Origin: Phreatobacter aquaticus
Lineage (GTDB): Bacteria; Pseudomonadota; Alphaproteobacteria; Rhizobiales; Phreatobacteraceae
Length of the DNA: 64,000 nucleotides
Reading direction: 5' to 3'
Assembly (NCBI RefSeq): GCF_005160265.1
Contig: NZ_CP039865.1
Coordinates: forward strand, 2,442,828 to 2,506,827
Shown here: positions 2,189 to 17,175 of the stretch, piece by piece
Layout of the letters: each line of letters starts with the position of its first letter
Position numbering within the stretch: the stretch's first letter is position 1
Notes under the pieces: generated by a model
The model's database searches: none
What the model was told of the DNA's origin: nothing
Seen by the model: only the letters and a program-made list of their open reading frames with translations
Program-made: the position numbers and the translations under genes

Positions 2189-2201
2189 GGCTGTCCCCCG
2201 C

Positions 2202-3347
2202 TCAGGCGGCGTTGCGCTTCTGCATCTCACGCAGGATGACGAGGTGCTGGATGTCGTTGGTGCCCTCGTAGATGCGGGTGACGCGGGCATCGCGATAATG
2301 GCGCTCGACCGGGAAGTCGGCGAGATACCCGTAGCCGCCCATGGTCTGGATCGCTTCCGAACAGACCCATTCGGCCGCGTCGGACGCGACGAGCTTGGCC
2401 ATGCAGGCCTCCATCAGGCAAGGCTGGCCGGCATCGGAGAGTGCGGCCGCATGCAGCACCATCTGACGGGCGCTCTCGATCCGCGTCGCCATGGCGGCAA
2501 GGCGGAAGCCGACCACCTGATGCTCGATGATCGGCTTGCCGAACACCACGCGGTCGCGGGCATAGTCGAGCGCCGCCTCATAGGCCGCGCGGCCGATGCC
2601 GACGGCCTGGGCGGCAATGCCGATGCGTCCGCCCTGCAGGTTGGAGAGTGCGATCCGGTAACCCTCGCCCTCGGCGCCGAGGCGGTTCGCCACCGGCACG
2701 CGCAGGTTCTCAAACGCGATCTGGCAGGTGTCGGAGGAGTGCTGGCCGAGTTTCTCCTCCTTGCGCACCACCACATAGCCCGGCGCCGGCAGCGGCACGA
2801 TGAAGGCGGAAATGCCCTTGGTGCCGTCCTGTGGGCCGGTGCGGGCGAAGATCAGCGCGACATCGGCATTGCTGCCCGTGGTGATGAACTGCTTGGTGCC
2901 GTTCAGCACATAATGATCGCCGTCGCGCACCGCGCGGGTGGCCAGCGCGCCGGCATCCGAGCCTCCATGGGCTTCCGTCAGCAGGAAGGCGGAGATCATG
3001 CGCCCCTCGGCCATGGGCTTCAGGAACCGCTCCTTCTGCTCGTCGGTGCCGAACGTGACGAGCGGCATGCAGCCGACCGAATTGTGCCCGCTCATCACGG
3101 TGGATGTGCCGGCATCGCCGGCGGCGATCTCCTCCAGCGCCAGCGCGGTCGACACATAATCCGCACCAACACCGCCCCATTCCGCCGGCACATTCATGCC
3201 CATCAGGCCGAGGCTGCCCATTTCCCGGATTTCCGCCATCGGGAAATGGCTTTCGCGATCCCACCGGGCAGCGTTCGGTGCCAGCTTCTCGCGCGCGAAC
3301 TGGCGCGCCATGTCGCGGATCATCGTCTGCTGCTCGGTGAGGATCAT
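2202..3347 (-). CDS. Acyl-CoA dehydrogenase (FAD), first of two
   Basis: A full-length 381-residue acyl-CoA dehydrogenase. It shows the N-terminal helical domain, the flavin segment AFLLTEAHGGSDAGA (about residues 120-135), the substrate/FAD strand TKQFITTGSNADV, and the C-terminal RIYEGTNDIQ. The Glu of RIYEG is the catalytic base in short- and medium-chain enzymes. It would oxidise an acyl-CoA to the 2-enoyl-CoA and pass electrons to ETF. It sits 24 bp downstream of the second dehydrogenase and 13 bp upstream of the racemase-like gene, in one operon read leftward. The substrate is unknown; the racemase next door hints at a 2-branched one. Confidence 0.93.
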   Translation of the reverse strand: MILTEQQTMIRDMARQFAREKLAPNAARWDRESHFPMAEIREMGSLGLMGMNVPAEWGGVGADYVSTALALEEIAAGDAGTSTVMSGHNSVGCMPLVTFGTDEQKERFLKPMAEGRMISAFLLTEAHGGSDAGALATRAVRDGDHYVLNGTKQFITTGSNADVALIFARTGPQDGTKGISAFIVPLPAPGYVVVRKEEKLGQHSSDTCQIAFENLRVPVANRLGAEGEGYRIALSNLQGGRIGIAAQAVGIGRAAYEAALDYARDRVVFGKPIIEHQVVGFRLAAMATRIESARQMVLHAAALSDAGQPCLMEACMAKLVASDAAEWVCSEAIQTMGGYGYLADFPVERHYRDARVTRIYEGTNDIQHLVILREMQKRNAA

Positions 3348-3371: not shown

Positions 3372-4541
3372 CTAGTTCTGGAATTTGGCGAGATGGGCGC
3401 GGGCAATGACGATCTTCTGGACCTCGGTCGCGCCCTCGTAGATCCGCAGCGCGCGGATATCGCGATAGAGCTCCTCGACCTTCTCGCCCTTCTTCACGCC
3501 GAGGCCGCCGAAGATCTGGATCGCGCGGTCGATCACCTTCTGGGCGTTCTCGGTCGCCACCATCTTGGCGATCGCCGCCTCCTTGGTGATGCGCTCGCGG
3601 CCCTGATCCTTCTCCCAGGCTGCGCGGAAGATCAGCAGGGCGGAAGCTTCGAGCTCCGCGACGCTGTCGGCAAGCGAGGCCTGCGTGAGCTGGAGGTCGG
3701 CGAGCGGCGCGCCGAACATCTTGCGGCTGACCGCTCGCCGGCTCGCCTCATGCAGGGCGCGATTGCCCATGCCGAGAGCGGCCGCCGCAACGGTTGAGCG
3801 GAACACGTCGAGCGTCGCCATGGCGATGGCAAAGCCCTGGCCGGGGCGGCCCAGCAGGGCGTCCTCCGGCACGACACAATTGTCGAAGCCGAGGGTCGCC
3901 AGCGGATGCGGCGCGATGACCTCGATCCGCTCGATGACCGAGAGACCTGGCGTGTCGGCCGGCACGATGAAGGCCGAGATGCCGCGGGCGCCCGCGGCCT
4001 CGCCGGTGCGCGCGAACACCACGTAGCGGTCGGCAATGCCGCCATTGGAGATCCAGGTCTTGGTGCCATCCAGCCGCCAGCCACCGGCAACCTTCGTGGC
4101 CGTGGTGGAGAGGGCCGCGACATCCGACCCGGCATCGGGCTCGGACAGCGCGAAGCCTGAGATCGCCTTGCCGTCGCGCACCGAGGGGCAGGCGGCGGCC
4201 TTCTGCGCAGGTGTTCCGAACAGCGAGATCGGACCGGTGCCCAGCCCCTGCATGGCGAAGGCAAAGTCGGCGAGACCGTCGACATAGCCAAGCGTCGCGC
4301 GGGCGATGCAGAGCGTGCGCACGTCGAGGGCGGCGCGAAGGCCACCCTGATCGCCGGGCACGCAGGCCTTGAGGAAGCCAGCCTCGCCGAGCGCCGTCAC
4401 CAGCCGGCGGCACGAGCCATCGACATCGTGATGGTCGACGAGGCCGGGGACCGTCGCCTCCGCCCATGTGCCAAGGCGGTCGGCGAAGGCGCGGTGGGCG
4501 TCATCGAAGAACGGCAGCGCAAGGAAATCAGCGGCAAGCAT
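3372..4541 (-). CDS. Acyl-CoA dehydrogenase (FAD), second of two
   Basis: A 389-residue acyl-CoA dehydrogenase with [17 protein letters not shown] (flavin loop), [20 protein letters not shown] and the catalytic Glu in [11 protein letters not shown]. The start at 4541 ([12 protein letters not shown]) is preferred over the in-frame ATG at 4574 because GGAGAG lies six bases before it. It is about 40 bp downstream of the crotonase gene and immediately upstream of the other dehydrogenase. The two proteins are clearly diverged paralogues, so they either act on different intermediates or form a hetero-oligomer, as paired dehydrogenases do in dicarboxylate and steroid side-chain pathways. Which applies here cannot be decided from sequence. 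Confidence 0.92.
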
Positions 4542-4580
4542 GGACGCTCTCCGCTGTTCGATGAGACGGGGCACGCATGA

Positions 4581-5411
4581 TCAATTGCCCTCGAAGACCG
4601 GCTTCTGCTTGGCAACGAAGGCGTTGTAGGCGCGCCCGTAATCCTTGGTCTGCATGCAGATCGCCTGCGCCTGGGCCTCCGCCTCGATGGCGCTGTCGAT
4701 GTCCATCGACCATTCCTGGTGGAGGCAAGTCTTGGTGATGCCGTGGGCGAAAGTCGGGCCGTCGGCCAGTTCCTTGGCGAGCGTCTGGGCCTCGGCCAGC
4801 ACGTCGTCAGGCGAGACGACCTTGTTGAAGAAGCCCCACTTGTCGGCTTCCTCCGCCGACATCGAGCGTCCCGTGTAGAGCAGCTCGGAGGCCCGGCCCT
4901 GGCCGATGATGCGCGGCAGGATCGCGCAGGCGCCCATGTCGGCGCCGGCAAGGCCGACCCGCACGAACAGGAAGGCGGTCTTGGCGCGCGGCGTGCCGAT
5001 GCGGAGATCAGAGGCCATGGCGACGATGGCGCCAGCGCCGGCGCAGATGCCGTCGACCGCCGCGATGATCGGCTGCGGGCAATGGCGCATCGCCTTGACG
5101 AGATCGCCGGTCATGCGGGTGAAGGCGAGCAGGCCCGGCATGTCGCCGGCTTCCTGCATGCGGACCAGCGGGCCGATGATCTCGTGGACGTCGCCGCCAG
5201 AGCAGAAATTGCCGCCAGCGCCGGTGACGACCACCGTCTTCACATCGGTCGCATAGACCAGCTTGAGGAACAGGTCGCGCAGTTCGGCATAGCTTTCGAA
5301 GGTCAGCGGATTCTTCCGCTCGGGCCGGTTCAGCGTGACGGTCCCGACCTTGCCGGCAACCTCCCACTTGAAATGGGTCGCCTTGTAATCAGCGGCTTTG
5401 AACGTCTGCAC
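4581..5411 (-). CDS. Crotonase-superfamily protein lacking both hydratase glutamates
   Basis: A 276-residue crotonase fold. The oxyanion-hole segment reads [13 protein letters not shown]. The two catalytic glutamates of classical enoyl-CoA hydratase are missing: GGGCELA is replaced by GAGAIVA, and PEILLG by VRVGLAG. An Asp (GLAGADMG) sits in the active-site loop instead. The protein may therefore be an isomerase, hydrolase or ring-cleaving member rather than a plain hydratase. The start is GTG at 5411, preceded by AGAGGA at normal spacing. It lies between the SDR gene (28 bp) and the dehydrogenases, so it belongs to the same catabolic operon. Confidence 0.85.
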
Positions 5412-5439: not shown

Positions 5440-6180
5440 TCAGGCCATGGTCAGGCCGCCGGAGACGCTGAGCGTCTGTCCGGTGATGTAATCGGATTTA
5501 TCGCTGGCGAAAAACAGGATCGCATTGGCGATATCCTCAGGTTTGCCGAAACGGCGGAACGGAATCGCACGTTTGAAGGCTTCGAGGTGGTTTTCCGGCA
5601 GCGCCATCAGCATCGGCGTTTCGGTCGGGCCGGGGCAGATGCAGTTCACATTGATCGAATAGCGCGCCATTTCGCGGGCAAGACCCTTCGAAAAGCTGAT
5701 CAAACCGCCCTTGGCGCCGGAATAGACGGTCTCGCCGGACGAGCCGACGCGGCCGGCATCGCTGGCGACATTGACGATCTTGCCCGAGCGGCGGGCGATC
5801 ATGGGATCGAGCAGGGCGCGGATCAGCTTGACCGGCCCCATCAGATTGACGTCGACGACCCGGTCCCAGAAGGCGCTGTCATTCTCGACGAAGGGCTGGC
5901 CCTTGCCGTAACCGGCGCCGTTGACCAGCACGTGAACCTCACCGCGGCCAAGCACGGCGGCGGCGAAAGCCGCAATCGACTCGTCGGAGGCGACGTCGAG
6001 GTGGAGGAAGGTCGCCTTCAGCCCTTCGGCGCGCATCTTGGCCGCCTGGGCCTCGCCCTTGTCGGCCGAGAGGTCGGCCAGCACAACGGCCGCGCCGGCA
6101 CGCGCCAGAACTTCCGCGGTCGCGAGACCAATGCCCGATGCCGCTCCGGTGACGACGACGGTCTTGCCTTCGAGCCTCAT
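5440..6180 (-). CDS. SDR-family dehydrogenase, resembles 2-hydroxycyclohexanecarboxyl-CoA dehydrogenase (BadH)
   Basis: A 246-residue classical short-chain dehydrogenase: cofactor motif TGAASGIG near residue 11, NGAGYG, catalytic Ser in [15 protein letters not shown], and YSGAK with catalytic Tyr and Lys. The stretch around [22 protein letters not shown] and the end [12 protein letters not shown] closely resembles what I remember of BadH from Rhodopseudomonas palustris. BadH oxidises a 2-hydroxyacyl-type alicyclic CoA ester with NAD. The expected role is the 3-hydroxyacyl-CoA dehydrogenase step of this operon. The gene starts 12 bp after the enoyl-CoA hydratase stop. SDR specificity is hard to predict, so the BadH likeness is a suggestion only. 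Confidence 0.88.
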
Positions 6181-6192
6181 GGGATCAGTCCT

Positions 6193-6945
6193 CTATCGGT
6201 CGAGAAATGCGGCGACCCGCCTGCGGGTGTCGCCGGTGTTGAGAAGCTTGTGGGTTTCGAGAAGCTCGATCTGCAGGCCTGAACCGAGTTCGGCATCGGC
6301 GGCCGAGAAGCAGCGCTTGCAGGCGGAAAGCGCCTTGGGCGACATGGTGGCCACTCGCTCGGCGAGCGCGAGCGTGAAGGCGGCGAGCTCTTCCGCCGGC
6401 ACCGCCCACTGGACAAGGCCGAGACCGAGCGCCTCAGCGCCGGTGATCACCTCGGCGGTCAGGATCATCCGCCGCGCCACGCCCGGGCCGCAGAGCCTGG
6501 ACATGCGCTGCGTGCCGCCGGCTCCCGGCAGCAGGCCGAGGCGGGTCTCGGGCAGGCCGAGCGGCGCGGTCTTCGCCGCCACCCGGAGATCGCAGGCGAG
6601 CGCCAGTTCGAAACCGCCGCCATGGGCCGCGCCGCCGATCTCGGCGATCACCACCTGGGATGCGCTTTCGATCCGGTCATAGAGCCGCTGGATGCGGCGG
6701 ACAGTCTCGACCATCGCGTCGGGGCCATCGTCGGTCGCGAAGCACTCCCGCATCAGCTTGAGGTCGGCGCCGGCCGAGAAGGTGCGCTGCGACGAGCGCA
6801 CCAGCAGCACGGTGATGTCCGGGCGCTGGTCGAGCTCGTCGAGCACGGCGTCGAAGCCGTCGATCCAGGCACGGTTGATGGCATTGACCGGCGCGCGCTC
6901 CATCGTGAGCACGAACACCGATCCCCTGGTCTCTGTTCTGAACAT
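6193..6945 (-). CDS. Enoyl-CoA hydratase (classical catalytic residues present)
   Basis: A 250-residue crotonase. Unlike its two paralogues in this block it keeps both catalytic glutamates, in GGGFELALACD and GLPETRLGLLPGAGGTQR, so true hydration of a 2-enoyl-CoA is likely. The start at 6945 (MFRTETRGS) is preferred over the ATG at 6972, because the latter falls inside the 20-bp operator palindrome and would give the odd N-terminus MNDHSFGEP. It is the first gene of the downstream catabolic operon (hydratase, SDR, crotonase, two dehydrogenases, racemase-like). The operator lies 10 bp before its start codon, so repressor binding should block transcription directly. Confidence 0.92.
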   Translation of the reverse strand: MFRTETRGSVFVLTMERAPVNAINRAWIDGFDAVLDELDQRPDITVLLVRSSQRTFSAGADLKLMRECFATDDGPDAMVETVRRIQRLYDRIESASQVVIAEIGGAAHGGGFELALACDLRVAAKTAPLGLPETRLGLLPGAGGTQRMSRLCGPGVARRMILTAEVITGAEALGLGLVQWAVPAEELAAFTLALAERVATMSPKALSACKRCFSAADAELGSGLQIELLETHKLLNTGDTRRRVAAFLDR

Positions 6946-6954
6946 GGGTTCACC

Positions 6955-6974
6955 GAATGAATGATCATTCATTC
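6955..6974. promoter_or_regulatory. Perfect 20-bp palindrome, probable TetR operator 1
   Basis: GAATGAATGATCATTCATTC is its own reverse complement. It lies immediately upstream of the catabolic operon and about 280 bp downstream of the tetR stop. Closely related palindromes at 15522 and 16943 precede the two transporter units, which makes this a regulon operator rather than chance. Confidence 0.85.
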
Positions 6975-7253
6975 TTCTGGAATATGGGACGCTGGTGCCT
7001 GCGTCAAGCGGCCGAATGGCGCATGGGTTGTCGTGGTCAGTGGCGGCGGGACGGGATGCCGCGCGCCCTGTGGCGAAGCGACGGGCGTGGCGGCCTCAGT
7101 GGCGGCGAGACGACCGGTTTGGGGCTCAGCGACCGGCGAGGTTGCGGCGCTGCCAGGCGGGGGCAGGGTGACGGGCGCTCTTGATCAGAGGGGCCAGCGA
7201 CCAGGCTCATGGCAAGCGGACTGCCCAGCCTCGGCGAGCGGCCGATCCAGGTC

Positions 7254-8012
7254 TCAGTCCCGGGCCTTGGCCGGCGCTTTCGTCTTGCTGGCTCCCGCCT
7301 TGCCGGCCCTGGCCGCCGTCGCCCGGTGGGCGGCGAGGAACTGGCCGTACTGGATCAGGCCCTTCGGGGTCGCCATGGCATGGACGAAGAAATCGAAGCC
7401 CTGCTCGATATAGCCTTCGATCGTGGTGATCTGGCTGAGCCGCCAGTGCTTCAGCGCCCAGGTATGGGCATAGAGCACCAGCTGGTAGGTGACGAGATCG
7501 ACATTGACCTCACGAAACACGCCGGCCGCCACGCAGTCGCGCAGGCGCTGCGCGATGAATTCGTTGGTCTCGAGCTCCAGCTGCTTGATCAGCTCGCGCT
7601 GCTCGCGCGGCAGCGATTTCGTCGAGCGATAGGCGAGAACGGCCGCGCTCCTGCGGTGATCGATGACCCGGCAGAAGGTTGCGAGCGACGACCACAAGGC
7701 TTCCAGCGGATCGCTGATCGTGGTGACCGAGAGCGGGATTTCCTGCTTGTACGATTCCAGCACGCTCATCAGCGAGAGCAGCAGGACGTCTTCCTTGGTC
7801 TGCGCATATTGGTAGATCAGGCCGATGCTAACGCCGGCCTTGCGCGCGATGTCCTGGATGGTCGTGCGATAATAGCCCTGATCGGAAAACAGCTCGACCG
7901 CCGCCGCGACGATCTGCTCACGCCTGCGCATGACCAGCTTCTCGTCGGTCACCTGGCTCTTGACGATCGTCTGATCAAAAGCCCTAGGGGGGGGTGTCAG
8001 AGGCTTCTTCAT
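7254..8012 (-). CDS. TetR/AcrR-family transcriptional regulator
   Basis: A 252-residue regulator. The N-terminal helix-turn-helix (about residues 30-80) reads IVAAAVELFSDQGYYRTTIQ and continues DIARKAGVSIGLIYQYAQTKED, a clear TetR domain. The rest is an alpha-helical ligand domain of unknown specificity, and the tail is Lys/Ala rich. It sits inside the minus-strand block, after the thioesterase gene and before the catabolic operon. It is the natural candidate to bind the three GAATGAAT-type palindromes. In such clusters the repressor is usually released by a CoA thioester of the pathway. A run of eight Gs lies within the first codons (7986-7993), a possible slippage site, but the frame is intact. 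Confidence 0.93.
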   Translation of the reverse strand: MKKPLTPPPRAFDQTIVKSQVTDEKLVMRRREQIVAAAVELFSDQGYYRTTIQDIARKAGVSIGLIYQYAQTKEDVLLLSLMSVLESYKQEIPLSVTTISDPLEALWSSLATFCRVIDHRRSAAVLAYRSTKSLPREQRELIKQLELETNEFIAQRLRDCVAAGVFREVNVDLVTYQLVLYAHTWALKHWRLSQITTIEGYIEQGFDFFVHAMATPKGLIQYGQFLAAHRATAARAGKAGASKTKAPAKARD

Positions 8013-8060
8013 CGTCTTCCGATCTAGTTCGGCTCGATTGTCCCGTCGCCGGGACAGGCA

Positions 8061-8492
8061 TCAACCTGTTGGATAAACCGGACGCAACCGTTTCCAAAGC
8101 CCGGTTGCGGTCAGAAGCAACCTTTTTCCGCAGCGCAATTCGCCCTGGACGAAAACGACCGAGCGCGTCACCCGCGTCACCGCGGCCGAGCACTCGATCA
8201 GATCGCCCGGCCTGGCGCCGTCGACGAAATCGCAAGTGAGGCTGATGGTGACCGCCATGCCACCGTCGATCGCCTCCATGACAGTCAGCCCCAGCGTCTG
8301 GTCCGCAAGGGCGGTGAGCACGCCGCCATGGATCGCGCCGCGGATATTGCTGTGCGCCTCGCCAGTCCTGAAGGCGAAGCCGGGGCCATTGGATCGCCTG
8401 TAGAGCGGCCCCAGGACCCGATCGAAATTGCCATCCAGCGCCGGTGTCGGCTCATAGCCTTCGGGAATGCCGGGTGGGACTGCGCTGGTCAT
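8061..8492 (-). CDS. PaaI-type hotdog-fold acyl-CoA thioesterase
   Basis: A 143-residue single hotdog domain. The signature is HSNIRGAIHGGVLTALADQ, in which the HGG loop and following acidic residue build the thioesterase site, followed by ISLTCDFVDGARPGDLIE. It probably releases free acid from CoA esters that accumulate in the pathway, a housekeeping role for the CoA pool. The start at 8492 (MTSAVPPG) is preferred; it comes a few bases after the stop of the oxidoreductase gene, which suggests coupled translation. The ATG at 8519 would overlap that gene. Confidence 0.85.
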   Translation of the reverse strand: MTSAVPPGIPEGYEPTPALDGNFDRVLGPLYRRSNGPGFAFRTGEAHSNIRGAIHGGVLTALADQTLGLTVMEAIDGGMAVTISLTCDFVDGARPGDLIECSAAVTRVTRSVVFVQGELRCGKRLLLTATGLWKRLRPVYPTG

Positions 8493-8496
8493 CGGA

Positions 8497-9507
8497 TCAT
8501 GACGAAGGCTCGCGCCCACGCGCCGTGACCAGCACCACCTTGCCCAGCGCCTTGCGCGTGACGATCAGCTCCATGGCGTCTGCGATCTCCTCGATCGGCA
8601 CCACCGCGCAGAGCGGCGGGTCGATACGGCCATCCGCCGCCATGGCGAACAGGTCCGCCTGCACCTCGCGCACCCGGTCCGGCATCCGCTCGAGATAGTC
8701 GCTCCAGTGAATACCGGTCACCGCGATATGCTTGACCAGAATGTAGTTCGCCCGCGCGCTCGGGATCTCGCCGCCCGCAAAGCCGACCACCACGAGCCGC
8801 CCATCCCAGGCAAGCGCCCTGAGGCAGGCCTCGAATCCGGGGCCGCCGACATTTTCGATCACCACGTCGGCGCCATGCCCGTCAGTTGCCGCCTGAACCT
8901 GCGCGCGCACGTTGTCGCGCAGGTTTGCGCCGCTCATGTCGATCACGGCATCGGCGCCCTGCGCCAGCACGAAGTCGCGCTTGTCGGGGCTGCCGATGCC
9001 GGCCAGCACCCGGCATCCCGCGGCCTTGGCGAGTTGCATGGCCGAGACGCCGATACCACCGCCGGCACCGGTTACCAGCACGGTCTCGCCGGGCTTCAGC
9101 CGGCCGCGATCAAAGAGTGCAAACCAGGACGTCTGATAGGTCAGTCCCAGGGCGGCGGCCCTGGTCATCGAAAGGCCGGCGGGCATCGGATAGCAATGCT
9201 CGGCGGACACCCGGACGGTCTCGGCGAAGGCACCGTTCTCCAGCTGGCCGACGACGCGGTCCCCCGCCTTGAAGCGCGTGACGCCTTCGCCAACGGCCGC
9301 GACGATCCCGGCGAATTCCTTGCCCGGTACGAAGGGAAGAGGCGGCAGGGTCTGATACTTGCCGGCGGCGACCAGCACGTCGGGGAAATTGAGGCCGACA
9401 GCATGGACGTCGACCGTCACCTCGCCCGGTGACGGCTCCGGCCTCGGCCAGTCGCGGAACACCAGGGCCTCCGGCGGGCCGAACCGCTCGACCACCACTG
9501 CTTTCAC
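8497..9507 (-). CDS. Zinc-type alcohol dehydrogenase-like / NADPH:quinone oxidoreductase family protein
   Basis: A 336-residue medium-chain dehydrogenase/reductase. It has the GroES-like N-domain (GLNFPDVLVAAGKYQ, FVPGKEFAGIV) and a Rossmann domain (LVTGAGGGIGVSAMQLAK). The structural-zinc cysteines are absent, so it belongs to the quinone oxidoreductase/enoyl reductase branch, which uses NADPH. The start codon is GTG at 9507 with AAGGAG six bases upstream. It lies 28 bp after the acyl-CoA ligase gene. A likely job is reduction of an enoyl or unsaturated intermediate of the pathway, but the family is broad. Confidence 0.88.
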   Translation of the reverse strand: MKAVVVERFGPPEALVFRDWPRPEPSPGEVTVDVHAVGLNFPDVLVAAGKYQTLPPLPFVPGKEFAGIVAAVGEGVTRFKAGDRVVGQLENGAFAETVRVSAEHCYPMPAGLSMTRAAALGLTYQTSWFALFDRGRLKPGETVLVTGAGGGIGVSAMQLAKAAGCRVLAGIGSPDKRDFVLAQGADAVIDMSGANLRDNVRAQVQAATDGHGADVVIENVGGPGFEACLRALAWDGRLVVVGFAGGEIPSARANYILVKHIAVTGIHWSDYLERMPDRVREVQADLFAMAADGRIDPPLCAVVPIEEIADAMELIVTRKALGKVVLVTARGREPSS

Positions 9508-9535
9508 GGCGTGCTCCTTCCGGCTGCCGCCCTGC

Positions 9536-11173
9536 TCACTCGCCGGGCTTCATCGTCTTGGCCATCTCGCGCAGGCGGAATTTCTGGATCTTGCCGCTGG
9601 CGGTGCGCGGCAGCTCGCTCAGCACTTCCAGCCGTTCAGGCAGATAGTTCTTGGTGATGTGCTGGCTCGACAGGAAGGCCGTCACGTCGCCGAGCGTCAC
9701 CTTTGTGCCGGGCCGGGTGGTGACAAAGGCGCAGGCGCGCTCGCCGAGGCGATCATCCGGCATGGCGACGATGGCGACATCGTTGATATCGGGGTGCTTG
9801 TAGACCAGGCCCTCGATCTCGACGACCGGGATGTTCTCGCCGCCGCGAATGATGATGTCCTTGGCCCGGCCGGTGATGCGGACATAGCCTTCGGCGTCGA
9901 TGCGCGCGAGATCGCCCGTGTCGAACCAGCCTTCGGCATCCACCGCATTGAGATCCGGCCGCTTCAGATAGCCGACGAAATTGCTGCAGCCCTTGACCTG
10001 CAGGCGGCCCTCCTCGCCGGCGGCCAGCGGCTTGTCGGCTGGGTCGACGACGCGCACCGCCATGCCCGGCAGCGGGCAGCCATCGGTCTCGAAGGCCTTT
10101 TCCGGTGGATCTTCCGGTTTGGTGACGGTCACCGCGCCGTTCTCCGTCATGCCCCAACCGGACGCGATGGTGGCGCCCATATGGTCGGTGGCGCGCCGCA
10201 CGAGCACGCGCGGGATCGGCGCGCCGGCCGCCAGGAACACCCGGAGCGAGCGGAAGGCCTCGGGCCTCGCCTCCGCCTCGTCGGTGAGGTCGGCGAGGAA
10301 TGGCGTCGAGGCCATGGTGAAGGTCGGCCGCTCGGCTGCGAACAGGTCGGCGGCCACCTTGCGGTTCCAGATATCCTGCAGCACCACGTGGCAGCCGAGC
10401 ACGATCGGCATCATCAGCCCGTACATGAAGCCGGTCTGGTGGGCGAGCGGGGAGGCCATGAACACGATGTCCTGGCCCGACAGGTGCAGCCGCTCGATAT
10501 AGGGGCCGAGATTGCTGATCTGGGTGTTGGACGTGTGCATCACGCCCTTGGGCTCACCGGTCGTGCCGGAGGTGTAGAGCACCTGGATGATGTCGTCCGG
10601 CTTCGGCCGGCGCGCGGCGAACAGCGCTGTGGCCGCCGTCTGGTCGACCGGCTTGTCGTGGAGGCGCTCGAACGCTGCATCACCCTCGCCGCCGATCACC
10701 AGGGCATGAGCGAGATGGGGCAGCACATCGCGCATGCCGGCGATCATCGCGCCATGGTCGAAGTCGCGGAAGACCTGCGGCGTCACCACCACCTTGGAGC
10801 GGGCGTGGTTGAGCATGAATTCCAACTCGCGGCGCCGCAGGATCGGCATGATCGGATTGGTGATCGCGCCGATGCGCAGGCAGGCGAGATGCAGCGCGAC
10901 GAACTGCCACCAGTTGGGCAACTGGTAGGAGACGACATCGCCGACCTCGACCCCAAGACCCGCGAGGTTGACCGCGATGCGCGTCACCCGCTCGTCGAGT
11001 TCGCCATAGGTGAGGCGCGTCTGGCTCGCCTGGGTCACGTCATGGGCGACGATCGCCAGGGCGCCCGGCTGCTCCTTCACCCGATGGTCGAAATCGTCGA
11101 GCAGGGTCCGGTTCTTCCAGAATCCAGCCTTCACCATGGCGTCGCGGCGCGCGGCAAACCCATCCATATGCAT
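9536..11173 (-). CDS. AMP-forming acyl-CoA ligase, possibly alicyclic or medium-chain acid specific
   Basis: A 545-residue ligase of the ANL superfamily. Motifs in order: LYTSGTTGEPKGVMHT (P-loop-like A3), GWGMTENGAV (A5), WFDTGDLARIDAEGYVRI (A7), GRAKDIIIRGGENI (A8) and the catalytic Lys in RTASGKIQKFRL. It converts a free acid, ATP and CoA to acyl-CoA. The overall look (long N-terminus, GGENIPVVEIE) recalls cyclohexanecarboxylate-CoA ligase AliA, but that is inference. The start at 11173 (MHMDGFAARR) has GGAG about eight bases upstream. As the only complete ligase of the regulon it should activate the acid imported by the Liv transporter. Confidence 0.9.
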   Translation of the reverse strand: MHMDGFAARRDAMVKAGFWKNRTLLDDFDHRVKEQPGALAIVAHDVTQASQTRLTYGELDERVTRIAVNLAGLGVEVGDVVSYQLPNWWQFVALHLACLRIGAITNPIMPILRRRELEFMLNHARSKVVVTPQVFRDFDHGAMIAGMRDVLPHLAHALVIGGEGDAAFERLHDKPVDQTAATALFAARRPKPDDIIQVLYTSGTTGEPKGVMHTSNTQISNLGPYIERLHLSGQDIVFMASPLAHQTGFMYGLMMPIVLGCHVVLQDIWNRKVAADLFAAERPTFTMASTPFLADLTDEAEARPEAFRSLRVFLAAGAPIPRVLVRRATDHMGATIASGWGMTENGAVTVTKPEDPPEKAFETDGCPLPGMAVRVVDPADKPLAAGEEGRLQVKGCSNFVGYLKRPDLNAVDAEGWFDTGDLARIDAEGYVRITGRAKDIIIRGGENIPVVEIEGLVYKHPDINDVAIVAMPDDRLGERACAFVTTRPGTKVTLGDVTAFLSSQHITKNYLPERLEVLSELPRTASGKIQKFRLREMAKTMKPGE

Positions 11174-11270
11174 GGTCCACTCCCTCGGGCGGTCGTTTCC
11201 GGGCGACGCCCTTGAGGCGCCGCGCATTTTGATGTCCGGCGGTCGTGTCGCCGCCGGTTGTCAGGTCACG

Positions 11271-12092
11271 TCAGAGCGGTGAGCTTTCCGGGAACACCGG
11301 CTTGCGCTTCTCGACATGGGAGGCGAGGCCCTCCTTCACGTCGGGGCCGGTGAAGCCCATGAATTCCAGCGCCAGCGAGGCGTCGAAGGTCGGGCCCATC
11401 TGGCGCAGCCAGTTGTTCAGCGCATATTTGGTCCAGCGGATGGCGTTCGGCGCGCCCTCGGCGAGACGGGTCGCGATCTCGATCGACTTGGCGTCGAGGT
11501 CGGCATCGTCAACCGCCAGCGAGACCAGACCGATGCGCTCGGCCTCGGCGCCCGAGACCGGGTCGCACAGCAGCAGGTAATATTTGGCCTTGGCCATGCC
11601 GCAGAGCAGCGGCCAGATGATCGCCGCATGGTCGCCGGCTGCAACGCCGAGCCGGGTATGGCCGTCGATCAGCCGGGCGTCCTTGGTGACGATGGAGATG
11701 TCGGCAAGCAGGCCGCAGACGAGGCCTGCGCCGACCGCCGGTCCGCGAATGGCGCTGATGATCGGCTTGGAGCAATTGATCACGTTGTAGACGATGTCGC
11801 GCGCTTCCTTCCAGTTGCGGGCGCGCGTCTCGAAATCGTTGATGATCTTCTCGATCATCTTGAAGTCGCCGCCGGCCGAGAAGGCCTTGCCGTGACCGGT
11901 CAGGATCGCCGCCGAGACGGTCGGATCCTTGTCGATGTCCTGCCAGATAGTGGCGAGTTCGCCATGCATGATCTCGTCGGCGGAGTTCAGCCGTTCCGGA
12001 TTGTACATGGTCACGCGCAGCACACGCGGGTGCGGCCGGTCGAACTTCAGGCGCTGGTACTTGGCATAGGGATCGGCAGGAGCTTGGGACAT
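11271..12092 (-). CDS. Crotonase-superfamily protein, second member without hydratase glutamates
   Basis: A 273-residue crotonase. The oxyanion segment is [13 protein letters not shown]. Where hydratases have GGGCELA this protein has [11 protein letters not shown], and where they have PEILLG it has [14 protein letters not shown], so both catalytic Glu are gone. The loop carries Asp (AGD), in the same register as the other atypical crotonase at 4581-5411. The start at 12092 (MSQAPADPY) follows GAGAGGAAG. It sits between livF (39 bp) and the acyl-CoA ligase (97 bp), and is transcribed with the transporter genes rather than with the catabolic operon. Its reaction cannot be assigned; isomerase or hydrolase are options. 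Confidence 0.85.
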
Positions 12093-12131
12093 GGCTGGGC
12101 TTCCTCTCATTCCATTGGCATCGCCGCCGGA

Positions 12132-12823
<692 letters not shown>

Positions 12824-12827
<4 letters not shown>

Positions 12828-13537
12828 GTGATGCTGGTCCCGAGATAGGCGCGCACCACCTCCTGGTTGGCGCGGATTTCCTCGCCCGGACCGTCGGCCA
12901 GGATCTTGCCGAGATGCAGCACGGTGATGCGATCCGAGATCGAGAAGATGACGTCCATGTCGTGCTCGACGATCAGCACGGTGACGCCCCAGCTGGTGGC
13001 GAGTTCACGCAGGAGCCGGGCCAACACCAGGGACTCGCTGATCGACAGGCCGGCGGCGGGCTCGTCGAGGAGCAGCACCGAGGGCTTGCCGACGAGGGCA
13101 AGGGCCAGGTCGAGACGGCGCTGGTCGCCATAGGAAATGTCGGCGGCGCGCCGGTCGGCGAGGGCTGACAGCCCAAGCGCCTTGATCACCTCCTCGGTAT
13201 TGTCGGTCTCCGCCGCGCTGGCGGCGAGGCTGATCTGCTCGCGCACTTCGAGGTCGGCAAAGATATTGGTCTTCTGGAACGAGCGGGCGAGGCCGACACG
13301 GCGCCGTGCCCGGGCGGACAAGCCACTGATATCGCGCCCCTGGAAGCGCACGGTGCCGACCGTCGTGCCGCCGCCGCGACCGCAGAGCGCGTCCATCAGC
13401 GTCGACTTGCCGGCGCCATTGGGGCCGATCAGTCCGCGGATCTCGCCGGGGACCAGCGCGATGGAGACCTTGTCGACCGCGACAAAGCCGCCATAGCGGC
13501 GCGTCATGTCGATGCCTTCGAGAGCAAAGCCGCTCAT
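12824..13537 (-). CDS. livG: Branched-chain amino acid-type ABC transporter ATPase LivG
   Basis: A 237-residue ATPase: Walker A GPNGAGKSTLMDALCG, a Q-loop in ARSFQKTNIF, signature ISYGDQRRLDLALALVGKP (the usual LSGGQ reads SYGDQ, common in LivG), Walker B VLLLDEPAAGLS, and H-loop IVEHDMDVIFSI. The start at 13537 (MSGFALEG) overlaps the livM stop as ATGA; the stop likewise overlaps the livF start. It partners LivF on the cytoplasmic face of the LivHM channel. Confidence 0.95.
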
Positions 13538-14547
13538 CGGGCCTTCCCCTTCAGTTTGGCGACCATGCTGGACAGGAGGCCGCTGACGCCATGGGGCAGC
13601 AGGACCGTGACGACGATCAGCGTCACGCCGATGATCGCCGGCCAGTGCTCGGTGAGGTCGCCGGCCGCATCCTTGAACATGAAGAAGATCACCGAGCCGA
13701 GGGCAGGGCCCCAGATGGCCCGCGCGCCGCCGATCACCGCCATGACCAGCGCCTCGCCCGACAGCGACCAGTGCAGGACACCCGGCGTGACGAAGGCGTT
13801 GTAGAGCACGAACAACACGCCGCCGATGGCGCCGACGGCGGCCGACACGCCATAGATGATGGCGCGCGGCACCACGGTCTCGAAGCCGATATAGCGGGCC
13901 CGCTCCTCGTTCTCGCGAATGGCGATGGTCAGCAGCCCGAAGCGCGAGCGCGCGATCAGCCAGAGGCCGCCGATGATCAGCACCAGCACGATCCAGCAGA
14001 CGACGAACATGGTGGCGGGCTGCTGGAACACGGCGATGTCCATCCCGAACAGCGTGGATGGCAGGCGCACCGCCATGCCGTCGTCGCCATTGGCGAGGTC
14101 GCGCCAGCGCAGGAAGATCTCGTGGAACGACTGGGCGACGGCCAGCGTCAGCATGGAGAAGGCGAGGGGCGGCAGCCGGACGATGCCGAGGCCGGCGACG
14201 AAGGCGAGGATCGACGGCAGGACGATCGCGAGGATGATGGCGAGTTCGGTCGGCATCAGGCCGAACTTGCCGTTGAGCGCGACCCCATAGGCCGCCAGTC
14301 CATAGAAGGCGGCATGGCCGAAGCTGGTCAGGCCGTTCTGGCGGATCATGAAACCGATGCCCGTGGCCAGCACCGCGCTGATCACCGCCTGGGTCATCAG
14401 GGTGAGCGCCAGCTGCGACGACACCAGGACCGGCACGAGCAGCCCGAGCCCGAGGGCGCAGGCGATGACAACGGCCGCCAGTGGCAGCGGTGACCGCGAT
14501 GCCGGACGAGGCGAAGCCGCGTTGGTTTCGACGGAGGGCATGGTCAT
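13534..14547 (-). CDS. livM: Branched-chain amino acid-type ABC transporter permease LivM
   Basis: A 337-residue inner membrane permease with many hydrophobic helices, starting LPLAAVVIACALGLGLLVPV after a short cytoplasmic tail. The family loop is seen in NGLTSFGHAAFYGLAAYGVA and in SRFGLLTIAIRENEERARYI (EAA-like coupling helix). It forms the channel with LivH. The start at 14547 (MTMPSVE) overlaps the livH stop as ATGA, so the four transporter genes are one translationally coupled unit. Confidence 0.94.
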   Translation of the reverse strand: MTMPSVETNAASPRPASRSPLPLAAVVIACALGLGLLVPVLVSSQLALTLMTQAVISAVLATGIGFMIRQNGLTSFGHAAFYGLAAYGVALNGKFGLMPTELAIILAIVLPSILAFVAGLGIVRLPPLAFSMLTLAVAQSFHEIFLRWRDLANGDDGMAVRLPSTLFGMDIAVFQQPATMFVVCWIVLVLIIGGLWLIARSRFGLLTIAIRENEERARYIGFETVVPRAIIYGVSAAVGAIGGVLFVLYNAFVTPGVLHWSLSGEALVMAVIGGARAIWGPALGSVIFFMFKDAAGDLTEHWPAIIGVTLIVVTVLLPHGVSGLLSSMVAKLKGKAR

Positions 14548-15389
14548 TTTCCGGCTCCGGCAAGGCCTTGCGGACGCAGGGTCAGCACGAGCGCCATGAT
14601 GGCCAGCGGCAGCATCGAGGCGAGTTCGGGGACGAAGACGATGCCGAGATTGTGCACCTGGCCGATCAGCAGGGCTGCGATGAACACGCCGGTGAAGCTG
14701 GTGAGGCCTCCGGTGACCACGACCACGAAACAGTCGATGATGATGTAGCCGCCCATGGACGACGACAGCGCGAGCAGCGGCCCGGCGATCGTGCCGGAGA
14801 GGCCGGCAAGGCCAGTGCCGATGGCGACCACCAGAGCGCTGAGCCGGTCCGTATCGACGCCCTGCATGCCCGTGGTGACCGGATCGACGCTGGAGGCGCG
14901 GACATAGAGGCCGACCCGGCTGGAGCGCAGCCAGATCGCAAGGCCGGCGGCGACGGCCAGGGCGACAGCGATCACGAACAGCCGATAGACCGGGAAGGTC
15001 GCGCCGAACATCGGCACGACACCGGAGAGGATCTGCGGCGGCGCGACGGTGAGGAAGTCCTTGCCCCAGATGGTGCGAACGAGATCCTCGACGACGAACA
15101 ACAGGCCGAATGTCACCAGAAGCGTGACGATCGCGTCCTCATGGGCCAATGGCCGGAACACGAAGCGGTCGAGCAGCACGCCAAGGGCTGCCAGCGCGAC
15201 CACCGAGACGACCATGCCGGTCCAGAAGCCGAGATAGGCGGCGACCGCGTAGGAAATGTAGGCGCCCAGCATGAACAGGCCGCCATGGGCGAAATTGGTC
15301 ACGCGGCGCAGGCCGAAGATCAGCACCAGTCCGACGGACAGCAGGTAGAGAAAGCTGCCATAGACCAAGCCATTGATGATCTGGATCAT
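14544..15389 (-). CDS. livH: Branched-chain amino acid-type ABC transporter permease LivH
   Basis: A 281-residue permease of eight or so hydrophobic helices: IQIINGLVYGSFLYLLSVGL at the start, then RRVTNFAHGGLFMLGAYISY, the coupling segment SRVGLYVRASSVDPVTT, and the closing helices VTGGLTSFTGVFIAALLIGQ. It pairs with LivM. Its ATG overlaps the stop of a 30-codon leader ORF (15386-15478), so its translation is probably tied to that peptide. The nearest operator palindrome lies 132 bp upstream of this start and 43 bp upstream of the leader start. Confidence 0.94.
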   Translation of the reverse strand: MIQIINGLVYGSFLYLLSVGLVLIFGLRRVTNFAHGGLFMLGAYISYAVAAYLGFWTGMVVSVVALAALGVLLDRFVFRPLAHEDAIVTLLVTFGLLFVVEDLVRTIWGKDFLTVAPPQILSGVVPMFGATFPVYRLFVIAVALAVAAGLAIWLRSSRVGLYVRASSVDPVTTGMQGVDTDRLSALVVAIGTGLAGLSGTIAGPLLALSSSMGGYIIIDCFVVVVTGGLTSFTGVFIAALLIGQVHNLGIVFVPELASMLPLAIMALVLTLRPQGLAGAGK

Positions 15390-15478
15390 GCCAGTCGCAT
15401 CCGGGTCAACGGGGCGCGGGGAGCGAACGTCGCGCCGTAGGCGATCTCGGTGCGGGCCGGGCCGCTCAATCCTGCCAT
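15386..15478 (-). CDS. 30-codon leader ORF translationally coupled to livH
   Basis: A small frame begins with ATG at 15478, preceded by AAGGGAAGG at good spacing, and ends in TGA at 15388-15386. That stop overlaps the livH ATG (ATGA), the same arrangement as the other junctions of this operon. The peptide starts MAGLSGPARTEIAYGATFAP and ends RMRLA; I do not recognise it. It may be a leader peptide that couples translation, or the remnant of a larger gene. It lies just downstream of operator 2, so it is inside the transcript if the promoter is at the operator. Confidence 0.5.
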   Translation of the reverse strand: MAGLSGPARTEIAYGATFAPRAPLTRMRLA

Positions 15479-15521
15479 GACGTCCTTCCCTTCTGCATGA
15501 CGCGTTGCGATCGCGTCGTTG

Positions 15522-15541
15522 CTGAATGAATATTCATTCAG
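15522..15541. promoter_or_regulatory. Perfect 20-bp palindrome, probable TetR operator 2
   Basis: CTGAATGAATATTCATTCAG is self-complementary. It shares the GAATGAAT and ATTCATTC arms with the sites at 6955 and 16943. Here the arms abut, whereas the other two have four bases between them. It lies upstream of the leader ORF and livHMGF, so it should control the second transporter unit and the genes down to tetR. Confidence 0.8.
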
Positions 15542-15680
15542 TTTGCGTCTGTCAATGACCGGGCCTCGTTCGCGGGTAGGGGAGCGAAGGGTAGGTCCAA
15601 GCCGCGCGGCGGGACAATCCGCCGATTGGGAGTGTTGCGGGATGCGGGGGCAACCGTGTGCCTTGCTCTCGCCAGACGGG

Positions 15681-15707
15681 TCCGGCCGCGCCCGAAGCGC
15701 GACCGGA
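15681..15707 (-). terminator. Stem-loop after the substrate-binding protein gene
   Basis: TCCGG-C-CGCGC, loop CCGAA, then GCGCG-A-CCGGA: ten base pairs with one internal mismatch, 15 bases beyond the stop of the binding-protein gene. There is no U-run, so it may be a partial terminator or an mRNA-stabilising hairpin that lets the binding protein be made in excess over the permeases. Confidence 0.5.
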
Positions 15708-15721
15708 CAGCATGGTCGGGA

Positions 15722-16915
15722 TCAGAGGCGGCAGGTGCCGTCGGGCTTCGGCGTGGCGACGTCCGCCGGAACGGTCATGTTGATGACCGGGCGGAGCGCC
15801 CCATTGGCCATCGCGACCTGGCCGAAATAGTTCGGCCCGATCAGCTGATGGTCTTCCTTGCGCATCATCTGCGAGCCGAGGATCGTGTCGAAGCTGGCGC
15901 CTTCCATGGCCTTGGCGATGTCGGCCGGCTTGACGCTGTTGGCCTTCTTCACTGCCTGGAAGATCACCTGCATGCCGATATAGGTCTCGCCTTCGAAATT
16001 GGTCGGCAAGCTGCCCGGATATTTGACCGCCCAGTCGGCGACGAACTTCTTGTTCGACGGCGTATCCAGCGTCGCGCTGTAGTTGATGATGGTGTGGATG
16101 CCCTTCACCGTCTCGCCCAGCACCTTCACCGTGCCGTCCGTGGTGAAGCTGGTGCCGCCGGTGACGACCTTCTCGAACAGGCCGAACTGCTTGGCCTGCG
16201 TGGCGAAATTGATGGCATCGCGGCCAGCGAGCGCCACCCAAAGGGCCTGGGCACCGGAATCGGCGACTTTCTGGATATGGGCGGCGTAGTCATTGCTGCC
16301 GAAGGCCGGATAGTTTTCCGAGACGATGGTCTTGCCGGTGGCTTCCGAGGCCTTCTTGAAGCTCGCGCCGGAATTGCGGCCCCAGGCGATATCGGCCGCG
16401 ACGACGGCCCATTTGGTTTCCGGTCGCGTGGCAAGCCAGGGCTGCACCACGGCGGCATCGGAATAATCGGGGCGGTTCACGCGGAACATGCGGCCCTGGC
16501 ACTGCTTGCCGGTGATGTCGTCCGCCTTGTTGATGGTCGCGACATAGATCGCGTTCCAGCGCGCCAGCATCGGGCCCATGGCAAGAGCCTCGCCGGACGC
16601 GATGGAGCCGGTCAGCACGTTGAAGCCGGCCAGCGCCAGCTTCTCGCCCTGCTGGCGGGCAAGCTCGGGCTTGGCCTCGGTATCGAGGAAGCGGACCTCG
16701 ACCTTGTGGCCGTTGACGCCGCCGGCGGCATTGGCCTCGGCGACGGCGAATTCGATGGCGCGCTTGGCCTCGTCGCCGAGCTGGGCATAGGTGCCGGTCA
16801 GTGCCGTGGGCACGCCGATCTTCAGCGGCTCCTTGGTCTGGGCATGGGCCGTACCAGCTCCGGCGAGCACAACGCTCGACGCGCCGATCAGAAGCGTCCT
16901 TCTTGTCGTCTGCAT
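15722..16915 (-). CDS. Liv-type ABC transporter substrate-binding protein
   Basis: A 397-residue periplasmic binding protein of the leucine/amide family. The signal sequence MQTTRRTLLIGASSVVLAG ends at AHAQ and has a twin-arginine-like start. Mature features include LKIGVPTALTGTYAQLGDEA and AVAEANAAGGVNGHKVEVRF, the usual ligand-fold opening. The start at 16915 has GGAGG eight bases upstream; in-frame ATGs at 16930 and 16960 lack a ribosome-binding site, and the latter lies in the operator. It should capture the substrate for LivHMGF. Operator 3 is 27 bp upstream of the start. Confidence 0.93.
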   Translation of the reverse strand: MQTTRRTLLIGASSVVLAGAGTAHAQTKEPLKIGVPTALTGTYAQLGDEAKRAIEFAVAEANAAGGVNGHKVEVRFLDTEAKPELARQQGEKLALAGFNVLTGSIASGEALAMGPMLARWNAIYVATINKADDITGKQCQGRMFRVNRPDYSDAAVVQPWLATRPETKWAVVAADIAWGRNSGASFKKASEATGKTIVSENYPAFGSNDYAAHIQKVADSGAQALWVALAGRDAINFATQAKQFGLFEKVVTGGTSFTTDGTVKVLGETVKGIHTIINYSATLDTPSNKKFVADWAVKYPGSLPTNFEGETYIGMQVIFQAVKKANSVKPADIAKAMEGASFDTILGSQMMRKEDHQLIGPNYFGQVAMANGALRPVINMTVPADVATPKPDGTCRL

Positions 16916-16942
16916 GGGTCGTTCCTCCATTGGTCTTTTTAA

Positions 16943-16962
16943 GAATGAATGTTCATTCATTC
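16943..16962. promoter_or_regulatory. Near-perfect palindrome, probable TetR operator 3
   Basis: GAATGAATGTTCATTCATTC: nine-base arms around a TT centre. It differs from operator 1 by one base at the centre. It lies 27 bp upstream of the substrate-binding protein start codon. Confidence 0.82.
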
Positions 16963-17099
16963 ATCCATCGGGTGACCGGCAATTGTCAAGCGAGCGAAGG
17001 ATGGAGGGGACGGTTAAGATGGCCGGCCGGCGCGGCGAGCATCCGCCGGGAACGAACAGGTGTCGCGAGGACAGGTCCGCCCGCCCCCTGGCTTCGCTG

Positions 17100-17113
17100 G
17101 ATTGTTGACAATC
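17100..17113. promoter_or_regulatory. Candidate GntR/FCD operator overlapping a -35-like element
   Basis: GATTGTTGACAATC has six-base inverted arms (GATTGT/ACAATC) around TG. A further half-site GACAATC follows at 17114-17120. The sequence contains TTGACA, a -35-like hexamer; no good -10 is visible at the right distance. FCD-type GntR regulators commonly bind TTGT..ACAA palindromes, and such a regulator is the last gene of this cluster. Confidence 0.5.
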
Positions 17114-17175
17114 GACAATCTGCGCTTTTGACTGTCCGACGACAGAGCTTCAGCCGAGGCCGGACGGAGGGTCCC

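What the first reader, a model, noticed from the sequence alone, without database searches (positions are those of the whole stretch)
6955..16962. Three matching palindromes define a TetR regulon of transporter plus acyl-CoA pathway
Palindromes with GAATGAAT/ATTCATTC arms lie at 6955-6974 (perfect, 10 bp before the catabolic operon), 15522-15541 (perfect, 43 bp before the livH leader ORF) and 16943-16962 (one central mismatch, 27 bp before the binding protein). They occur at each transcription unit boundary of a 16-kb single-strand block that contains one tetR gene. The spacing differs (4, 0 and 4 bases between the eight-base arms), which may mean different affinity or registers. The sites are seen; the regulator assignment is inference from position.
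Basis: partly seen in the sequence, partly recalled or inferred. Interest (0 to 1): 0.7.

Follow-up and report, generated by a model that had tools for sequence, protein, structure and literature searches.

The report
TetR operators controlling a cyclic-acid regulon
Three near-identical DNA palindromes in a bacterium sit on the promoters of an uptake-and-breakdown gene block and are very probably the switches of one TetR-type repressor encoded inside that block; this is a well-supported but ordinary kind of gene control.

Summary
The three palindromes lie at the stated coordinates and are the only such places in the 4.97-Mb Phreatobacter-type genome (3 places at up to 2 mismatches, reversed control 0). 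Relatives of this tetR carry the same operator, GAATGA-N4-TCATTC, before tetR, the solute-binding protein, livH, a ligase and the enoyl-CoA-hydratase/SDR genes. In 14 genomes with a tetR relative, 16 of 18 distinct perfect sites lie within 10 kb of it; 5 of the 14 have none there.

One correction: the '4, 0, 4' spacing is a parsing artefact. All three sites contain the same 16-mer with a 4-bp spacer; site 1 holds it twice, shifted by 4 bp. TTGAC starts 16-37 bp upstream of the 16-mer at all three.

Most likely mechanism: a repressor dimer covers the -10/+1 region of three promoters and is released by a pathway acyl-CoA. Binding and inducer are inferred. The closest characterised parallel is MbdR of Azoarcus. 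The substrate is probably a cyclic acid; the textbook cyclohexanecarboxylate pathway fails its tests.

The parts
6955..6974 (.). Operator site 1: two overlapping GAATGA-N4-TCATTC 16-mers (6955-6970 and 6959-6974)
   Evidence: conserved in L067
15524..15539 (.). Operator site 2, one 16-mer inside the 20-bp palindrome 15522-15541
   Evidence: conserved in L067
16943..16962 (.). Operator site 3: 16-mer 16943-16958, plus a second register at 16947-16962 with one mismatch
   Evidence: L067 has the 16-mer shifted by 4 bp relative to TTGACA
6979..7007 (-). Probable promoter TTGACG-N17-TATTCC of the catabolic operon, operator directly downstream at about +1
   Evidence: read by eye; TTGAC distance; the tool's strict consensus scan did not report it
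15527..15555 (-). Probable promoter TTGACA-N17-TATTCA of the liv operon; the -10 lies inside operator 2
   Evidence: read by eye; not reported by the strict scan
16984..16989 (-). Probable -35 TTGACA of the SBP promoter; operator covers the -10/+1 region
   Evidence: read by eye; not reported by the strict scan
7254..8012 (-). TetR-family regulator (252 aa; TetR_N, TetR_C_24), last gene of the liv-side run
   Evidence: structure model
15722..16915 (-). Periplasmic binding protein of a branched-chain-amino-acid/urea-type ABC transporter
15386..15478 (-). Short leader ORF (30 aa), stop overlapping the livH start
12132..15389 (-). livH, livM, livG, livF-type permease and ATPase genes
11271..12110 (-). 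Enoyl-CoA hydratase/isomerase family protein (PRK07327)
9536..11227 (-). Acyl-CoA ligase, closest model cyclohexanecarboxylate-CoA ligase (775.1 bits, cut-off 792.3)
8497..9507 (-). Zinc-binding-dehydrogenase/quinone-oxidoreductase family protein
8061..8519 (-). Thioesterase-superfamily (4HBT) protein
6193..6945 (-). Enoyl-CoA hydratase, first gene of the catabolic operon
5440..6180 (-). SDR dehydrogenase, closest model BadH (267.1 bits, cut-off 431.2)
4581..5411 (-). Enoyl-CoA hydratase PRK08258 (496.9 bits, cut-off 330)
3372..4574 (-). Acyl-CoA dehydrogenase 1
2202..3347 (-). Acyl-CoA dehydrogenase 2
1058..2236 (-). Family III (CaiB-type) CoA-transferase, end of the block (start codon assumed; 1058-2290 was scanned)

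Best explanation
The palindromes are operators of the TetR repressor encoded at 7254-8012. A TetR dimer recognises TGAATGA-N4-TCATTCA. It covers the -10/+1 region of three sigma-70-type promoters: the solute-binding-protein gene, the livHMGF-ECH-ligase-reductase-thioesterase-tetR operon, and the ECH-SDR-ECH-ACAD-ACAD-CoA-transferase operon. Without substrate it blocks all three promoters and limits its own synthesis, because tetR ends the liv operon. When a cyclic carboxylic acid enters and the ligase makes its CoA ester, that ester or a following one binds TetR and releases it, inducing uptake and breakdown together. Shown here: the sites, their uniqueness in the genome, their conservation with homologous tetR genes and their place beside TTGAC boxes. 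Inferred: operon extents, protein binding, repression, acyl-CoA inducer and substrate class.
For: Only three places in the genome. Perfect 16-mer in 14 of 30 deduplicated loci around homologous tetR genes, a single-mismatch site only in 9 more, none in 7; reversed pattern 0 of 30. All 13 loci of the clade nearest this tetR have a site with up to 1 mismatch (fork support 89/90, below the program's star). 39 of 42 such sites lie up to 420 bp before a homologue of a block gene, tetR itself 10 times (21 of the 23 loci with such sites were given, no random control). 14 tetR-positive genomes: 16 of 18 distinct sites within 10 kb of tetR, chance about 1e-35 under a uniform model. TTGAC starts within 40 bp of 23 of 28 operator registers against 6.5% of 4000 random positions in the same loci, at 15 or 16 bp in 13 of 31 instances. 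In L067 operators 1 and 2 and all three TTGAC boxes are kept while much of the intergenic DNA has changed. Helix-3 residues S62, G64, L65, I66, Y67, Q68, Y69 are invariant in the 12 sequences aligned (window and 11 near relatives). The model's PDB matches include acyl-CoA-binding TetR repressors: B. subtilis FadR with stearoyl-CoA, AibR with isovaleryl-CoA.
Against: No binding, expression or ligand data exist. 5 of 14 tetR-positive genomes have no perfect site within 10 kb of tetR; their TetRs are 39-44% identical to the query, but a 43% one (G475) does have a site. A second tetR relative of G257 (49%) has no site on its 5.3-kb contig. Four of ten tetR-less genomes of the genus hold one perfect 16-mer each, so other factors can use a similar sequence. 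Loci are not all independent: L071, L073 and L074 are near copies, and share genomes. The strict promoter scan reported none of the three promoters. More distant relatives differ in the recognition helix. The structural match is to a very common fold and does not prove acyl-CoA binding. tetR has no operator directly before it in the window, so autoregulation depends on read-through from the liv promoter.
Confidence: 0.83

Rival explanations
1. The sites belong to another TetR-type regulator elsewhere in the genome, with the local TetR controlling something else.
For: Four tetR-less genomes of the genus carry one perfect 16-mer each. Two other TetR-like genes of this genome have TGACTGA-like palindromes close upstream, so related factors may use related half-sites.
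Against: All perfect sites in this genome lie within 10 kb of this tetR. The next best TetR match in the genome is 27% identical (E 1.5e-11). The operator follows homologues of this tetR across families, often directly in front of tetR.
Confidence: 0.08
2. Two modes of binding: site 2 binds one dimer, whereas site 1 with two registers shifted by 4 bp binds alternative or paired dimers, giving graded affinity. (An addition to the best explanation rather than its opposite.)
For: Site 1 holds two perfect 16-mers shifted by 4 bp in both species with the full block. Site 3 of the window has a second register with one mismatch.
Against: In the other loci no perfect registers shifted by 4 bp were seen. 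Registers shifted by 4 bp share most of their bases, so two dimers could hardly sit side by side on one face. No measurements.
Confidence: 0.2
3. The palindromes act in RNA as hairpins (attenuation or mRNA stability) rather than as DNA operators.
For: Sites 1 and 3 may lie partly in the 5' leader.
Against: The spacer is fully self-complementary in only 4 of 26 perfect sites (the arms are fixed there by the search). TTGAC stands at recurring distances, and site 2 holds the probable -10. The terminator scan of 6000-18000 reports none at the three sites.
Confidence: 0.03
4. Chance or ancestral repeat copies without function.
For: The arms are GAAT tetranucleotide repeats, which can arise by slippage.
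Against: Uniqueness in the genome and conservation across families at the same gene starts.
Confidence: 0.01

Closest known systems
MbdR regulon of Azoarcus sp. CIB (anaerobic 3-methylbenzoate degradation; PMC4424350, abstract and passages seen)
   Same: TetR repressor; operon with ABC transporter plus CoA ligase; separate catabolic operon; operators spanning transcription start and -10; inducer there is the first CoA ester
   Different: Operator is ATACN10GTAT there, GAATGA-N4-TCATTC here; mbdR has its own promoter; here tetR ends the transporter-side run, and no benzoyl-CoA-reductase-type gene is among the block genes scanned
FadR of Bacillus subtilis (fatty acid degradation; PMC4525379, passages seen)
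   Same: TetR repressor of ligase and beta-oxidation operons, inhibited by long-chain acyl-CoA; its operator consensus as I recall it (TGAATGAMTANTCATTCA, from no call) fits site 2
   Different: NCBIfam FadR model 48.4 bits against a cut-off of 200; 18-20% identity in structural alignment; here linked to a transporter and to cyclic-acid-type enzymes
bad-ali cluster with BadR (cyclohexane carboxylate; PMC9795900, abstract and passages seen)
   Same: Ligase close to the cyclohexanecarboxylate-CoA ligase model, BadH-like SDR, enoyl-CoA hydratases, acyl-CoA dehydrogenases; CoA-ester-responsive repression there
   Different: BadR is MarR-type with CAAN4TTG in Gram-negative clusters; BadI, BadH, ligase and dehydrogenase models stay below cut-off here
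Salicylyl-CoA 5-hydroxylase (PRK08255) clusters
   Same: Paralogous SDR-ECH(PRK08258)-ACAD-ligase sets in other Phreatobacter genomes, ACAD1 83-87% identical in four clusters; two of the four were scanned and have PRK08255 beside them
   Different: Those four clusters have no such operator at up to 2 mismatches; the window block has no PRK08255 among its scanned genes, though the genome holds one elsewhere

Membership tests
TetR family of transcriptional regulators | N-terminal TetR_N helix-turn-helix domain | tested here: met
   PF00440 58.1 bits, cut-off 24; 12 of 12 aligned members
TetR family of transcriptional regulators | All-helical fold matching solved TetR repressors | tested here: met
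   Model pLDDT 81.6, 10 helices; the 50 PDB matches listed (of 1093) are nearly all described as TetR-like or other transcriptional regulators
TetR family of transcriptional regulators | Binds a palindromic operator as a dimer | not testable with these tools
   Palindromic sites tied to tetR homologues; no binding data
Bacillus FadR (NCBIfam NF053878) | Passes the curated model | tested here: not met
   48.4 bits against 200
Bacillus FadR (NCBIfam NF053878) | Operator consensus TGAATGA-N4-TCATTCA (recalled) | tested here: inconclusive
   Site 2 fits, but the consensus comes from memory; the two papers tried were not held
MbdR regulon | Operator ATACN10GTAT | tested here: not met
   Sites are GAATGA-N4-TCATTC; MbdR operator from PMC4424350
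MbdR regulon | TetR gene linked to ABC transporter, CoA ligase and catabolic operon with operators over the promoters | tested here: met
   Gene content; promoters predicted only
MbdR regulon | Inducer is an aromatic CoA ester | not testable with these tools
   No ligand data
bad-ali cyclohexane carboxylate pathway | BadI ring hydrolase | tested here: not met
   TIGR03210: 26 matches in the genome, 0 over the cut-off
bad-ali cyclohexane carboxylate pathway | Ligase (TIGR03208), BadH (TIGR03206) and cyclohexanecarboxyl-CoA dehydrogenase (TIGR03207) models | tested here: not met
   775.1 of 792.3, 267.1 of 431.2 and 225.0 of 575.35 bits; the ligase is a near miss

The most novel reading that the evidence does not exclude
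A so far undescribed alphaproteobacterial TetR subfamily controls an undescribed cyclic-acid degradation route. Its operator is built of GAAT tetranucleotide repeats, so that strand slippage can move or double the binding register by 4 bp (site 1 double, site 3 shifted between two species) and tune repression at each promoter.
Probability: 0.2. Interest if true: 0.5.

Novelty: new member of a known kind. Interest (0 to 1): 0.35.

Why it matters
It gives a testable operator, regulator and target set for a gene block whose substrate is unknown, conserved with a TetR subfamily in several alphaproteobacterial families. The regulator and its operator could serve to identify the substrate, since the inducer should be its CoA ester. 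It also shows that a regulator assignment made from position alone can be checked by whole-genome and comparative scans.

Tried and rejected
Different spacing as a sign of different binding modes: rejected as the main reading, because all sites share GAATGA-N4-TCATTC. Cyclohexanecarboxylate (bad-ali) assignment: rejected, models below cut-off and no BadI over cut-off. Wider regulon: the best extra site in the genome (about 4250750, between an acyl-CoA dehydrogenase and a CoA-transferase gene) is weak, and its surrounding 431 bases have no match in the 11 other genomes of the genus searched, so I do not count it. Literature searches for the motif letters gave nothing relevant: 0 papers, 20 of 207 listed, unrelated, 20 of 25 listed, unrelated. 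Such searches miss motifs shown only as logos. Searches on FadR, TetR, cyclohexane or aminobenzoyl-CoA terms gave only the parallels cited. The frame L113:6123-8471:+ was the wrong strand of a GC-rich gene; the true gene is the minus-strand ORF, PRK08255. One search found the own-genome copy through that antisense frame; the copy was then confirmed on the minus strand.
Full report
What is there. The window lies in a 4.97-Mb single-contig genome. I infer the genus Phreatobacter: the tetR contig of the same-genus genome G004 and the named record NZ_JAEULY010000014.1 (Phreatobacter MAG) are both 148,032 bases long. One minus-strand block runs from 16915 to 1058: solute-binding protein; livH, livM, livG, livF; ECH (PRK07327), acyl-CoA ligase, oxidoreductase, thioesterase, tetR; then ECH, SDR, ECH (PRK08258), two acyl-CoA dehydrogenases and a family III CoA-transferase.

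More than chance. In the whole genome the extended palindrome has only these three places at up to two mismatches, and the reversed control none. With the longer arms TGAATGA/TCATTCA and a 4-base spacer, only these three sites have zero or one mismatch, while five other places have two; at three mismatches there are many (54 places in all, control 8). The shorter core TGAATG-N2-CATTCA at up to two mismatches gives 38 places against 7 in the control, so looser searches do pick up other sites.

One operator, constant spacing. In relatives the site near tetR reads GAATGA-N4-TCATTC. The window sites fit: site 2 once; site 1 twice, shifted by 4 bp; site 3 once, plus once with a mismatch. Over 26 perfect sites the base before the arm is T in 39 of 52 half-sites; the first spacer position is A or T in 49 of 52 and the second T or C in 50 of 52. 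The six arm letters are fixed there by the search itself.

The tie to this TetR. tetR relatives were found without using the motif: 2 of 12 genomes of the genus, 10 of 397 of the order and 5 of 385 of the class, each count including the window's own genome (in only the best candidates of each genome were scored), and 19 named loci. Of 30 deduplicated loci (two shorter ones, L079 and L080, were not in this count), 14 hold a perfect 16-mer, 9 only one with a single mismatch, 7 none; the reversed pattern is absent from all 30 at both levels. Of the seven, L085 holds only a 31-residue match and L056 is a 5.3-kb contig. L071, L073 and L074 are near copies of one another. In the tree the 13 loci nearest the window all have a site (8 perfect, 5 with one mismatch); that fork has support 89/90 and is drawn open. 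The label 'perfect' is clustered on the tree (7 changes, shuffled mean 11.0, as low in 5 of 500), but not as one clade. For the tree L079, L080 and three other TetRs of the genome were labelled 'none' although not scanned for single mismatches. Of 42 sites in the 21 loci given to (L060 and L082, each with one single-mismatch site, not given), 39 lie up to 420 bp before a homologue of a block gene: tetR 10, the first ECH 9, ligase 7, SBP 5, SDR 4, livH or its leader 4, others 6; some sites count for two genes. Several of the ligase and SBP homologues are distant (25-29% identity), and no random control was run for this count.

Whole genomes. In 24 genomes the perfect 16-mer was counted. The 14 with a tetR relative have 20 hits (18 distinct sites); 16 sites lie within 10 kb of tetR, in 9 of the 14 genomes. 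Under a uniform model this has a chance of about 1e-35. The exceptions are one site in G015, inside a 762-codon ORF, and one in G167 on another contig. Five tetR-positive genomes have no perfect site near tetR (G015, G037, G065, G190, G765; TetRs 39-44% identical). Ten genomes of the genus without a tetR match at E 1e-30 have four hits in four genomes, with other spacer letters; reversed control 0 in all 24. Eight of those ten have a 72-75% copy of ECH PRK08258. The paralogous clusters that I read in three of them (G001, G005, G011), and the second one in G004, have no site at up to two mismatches.

Promoters. By eye, site 1 follows TTGACG-N17-TATTCC, site 2 overlaps TTGACA-N17-TATTCA, and site 3 follows TTGACA. 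Across loci, 23 of 28 operator registers (double registers counted twice) have TTGAC starting within 40 bp on one side, against 6.5% of 4000 random positions in the same loci; 13 of 31 TTGAC instances start 15 or 16 bp before the 16-mer, which puts the -10 inside the operator. The strict consensus tool reported none of these promoters; it asks for T at the last position of the -10. Against L067, aligned identity is 97 of 308 columns (site 1 region, half of it unmatched), 200 of 335 (site 2) and 59 of 101 (site 3); operators 1 and 2 and the TTGAC boxes are kept, and site 3 is shifted by 4 bp relative to its TTGACA.

The regulator. 252 residues with TetR_N and TetR_C_24; helix-3 residues are invariant in the window protein and 11 near relatives but vary in more distant ones. 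The structure model (mean pLDDT 81.6) matches TetR repressors in the PDB, first PfmR of Thermus, then among many KstR2, B. subtilis and B. halodurans FadR, and AibR. The Bacillus FadR model of NCBIfam is not met (48.4 of 200 bits).

The pathway. No model names it. The ligase is just below the cyclohexanecarboxylate-CoA-ligase cut-off (775.1 of 792.3), the SDR resembles BadH below cut-off, and BadI is not met (26 matches in the genome, none over the cut-off). In two relatives (L070, L078) the ligase beside an operator has benzoate-CoA ligase among its closest models (below cut-off), next to 3-hydroxyacyl-CoA dehydrogenase (PRK08268) and enoyl-CoA hydratase (PRK08138) genes. Of four paralogous Phreatobacter clusters, the two scanned lie beside PRK08255, named bifunctional salicylyl-CoA 5-hydroxylase/oxidoreductase. 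This genome has a PRK08255 at about 2.64 Mb but only one PRK08258 copy at E 1e-60, in the window. I infer a cyclic carboxylic acid, aromatic-derived or alicyclic.

Comparison with what is known. MbdR of Azoarcus has the same logic: TetR repressor, transporter-plus-ligase operon, catabolic operon, operators over the start and -10, first CoA ester as inducer, with another operator sequence (PMC4424350, abstract and passages). BadR of the bad-ali clusters is of MarR type in Gram-negatives, and Gram-positive bad-ali clusters carry a TetR-like gene (PMC9795900, abstract and passages). FadP and LiuQ, TetR regulators of fatty acid and branched-chain amino acid degradation, are given as unique to betaproteobacteria among the genomes of that study (PMC5343134, passages). 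My recollection that the B. subtilis FadR consensus resembles site 2 could not be checked. In the library I saw no paper on this operator, within the limits of three letter searches of which two were listed only in part.

Verdict. A real, conserved, locally acting TetR regulon of a familiar kind, with a regulator subfamily and substrate that I did not find described.

Noticed in passing
window 15386-15478: Short leader ORF before livH (30 aa in the window, 22 aa in L067): start region kept, interior differing by whole codons, stop overlapping the livH start; looks like translational coupling.
   Followed up: partly
window 16943-16962 and L067 1104-1119: Operator 3 is shifted by 4 bp relative to TTGACA between the two species, as expected from slippage of a GAAT repeat.
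   Followed up: partly
L015 about 1490-1520 (G000:C1:4250749-4250770): A weak similar palindrome between an acyl-CoA dehydrogenase and a family III CoA-transferase gene; its DNA has no match in the 11 other genomes of the genus searched.
   Followed up: partly
L031 and L008 (G000:C1:1317599 and 1661966): Two other TetR-like genes of this genome have TGACTGA-like palindromes close upstream, perhaps their own operators.
   Followed up: no
L095, L096, L098: Three tetR-less Phreatobacter genomes share a GAATGARATTTCATTC palindrome; in the two read (L095, L098) it stands in matching surroundings, probably the site of another factor.
   Followed up: no
L115 1459-3792 (minus), G000 at about 2.64 Mb: PRK08255-type salicylyl-CoA 5-hydroxylase gene, while the genome's only PRK08258 copy at E 1e-60 is in the window block.
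   Followed up: partly
window 18694-19359: On the plus strand beyond the block there is a separate ABC permease gene (BPD_transp_1).
   Followed up: no
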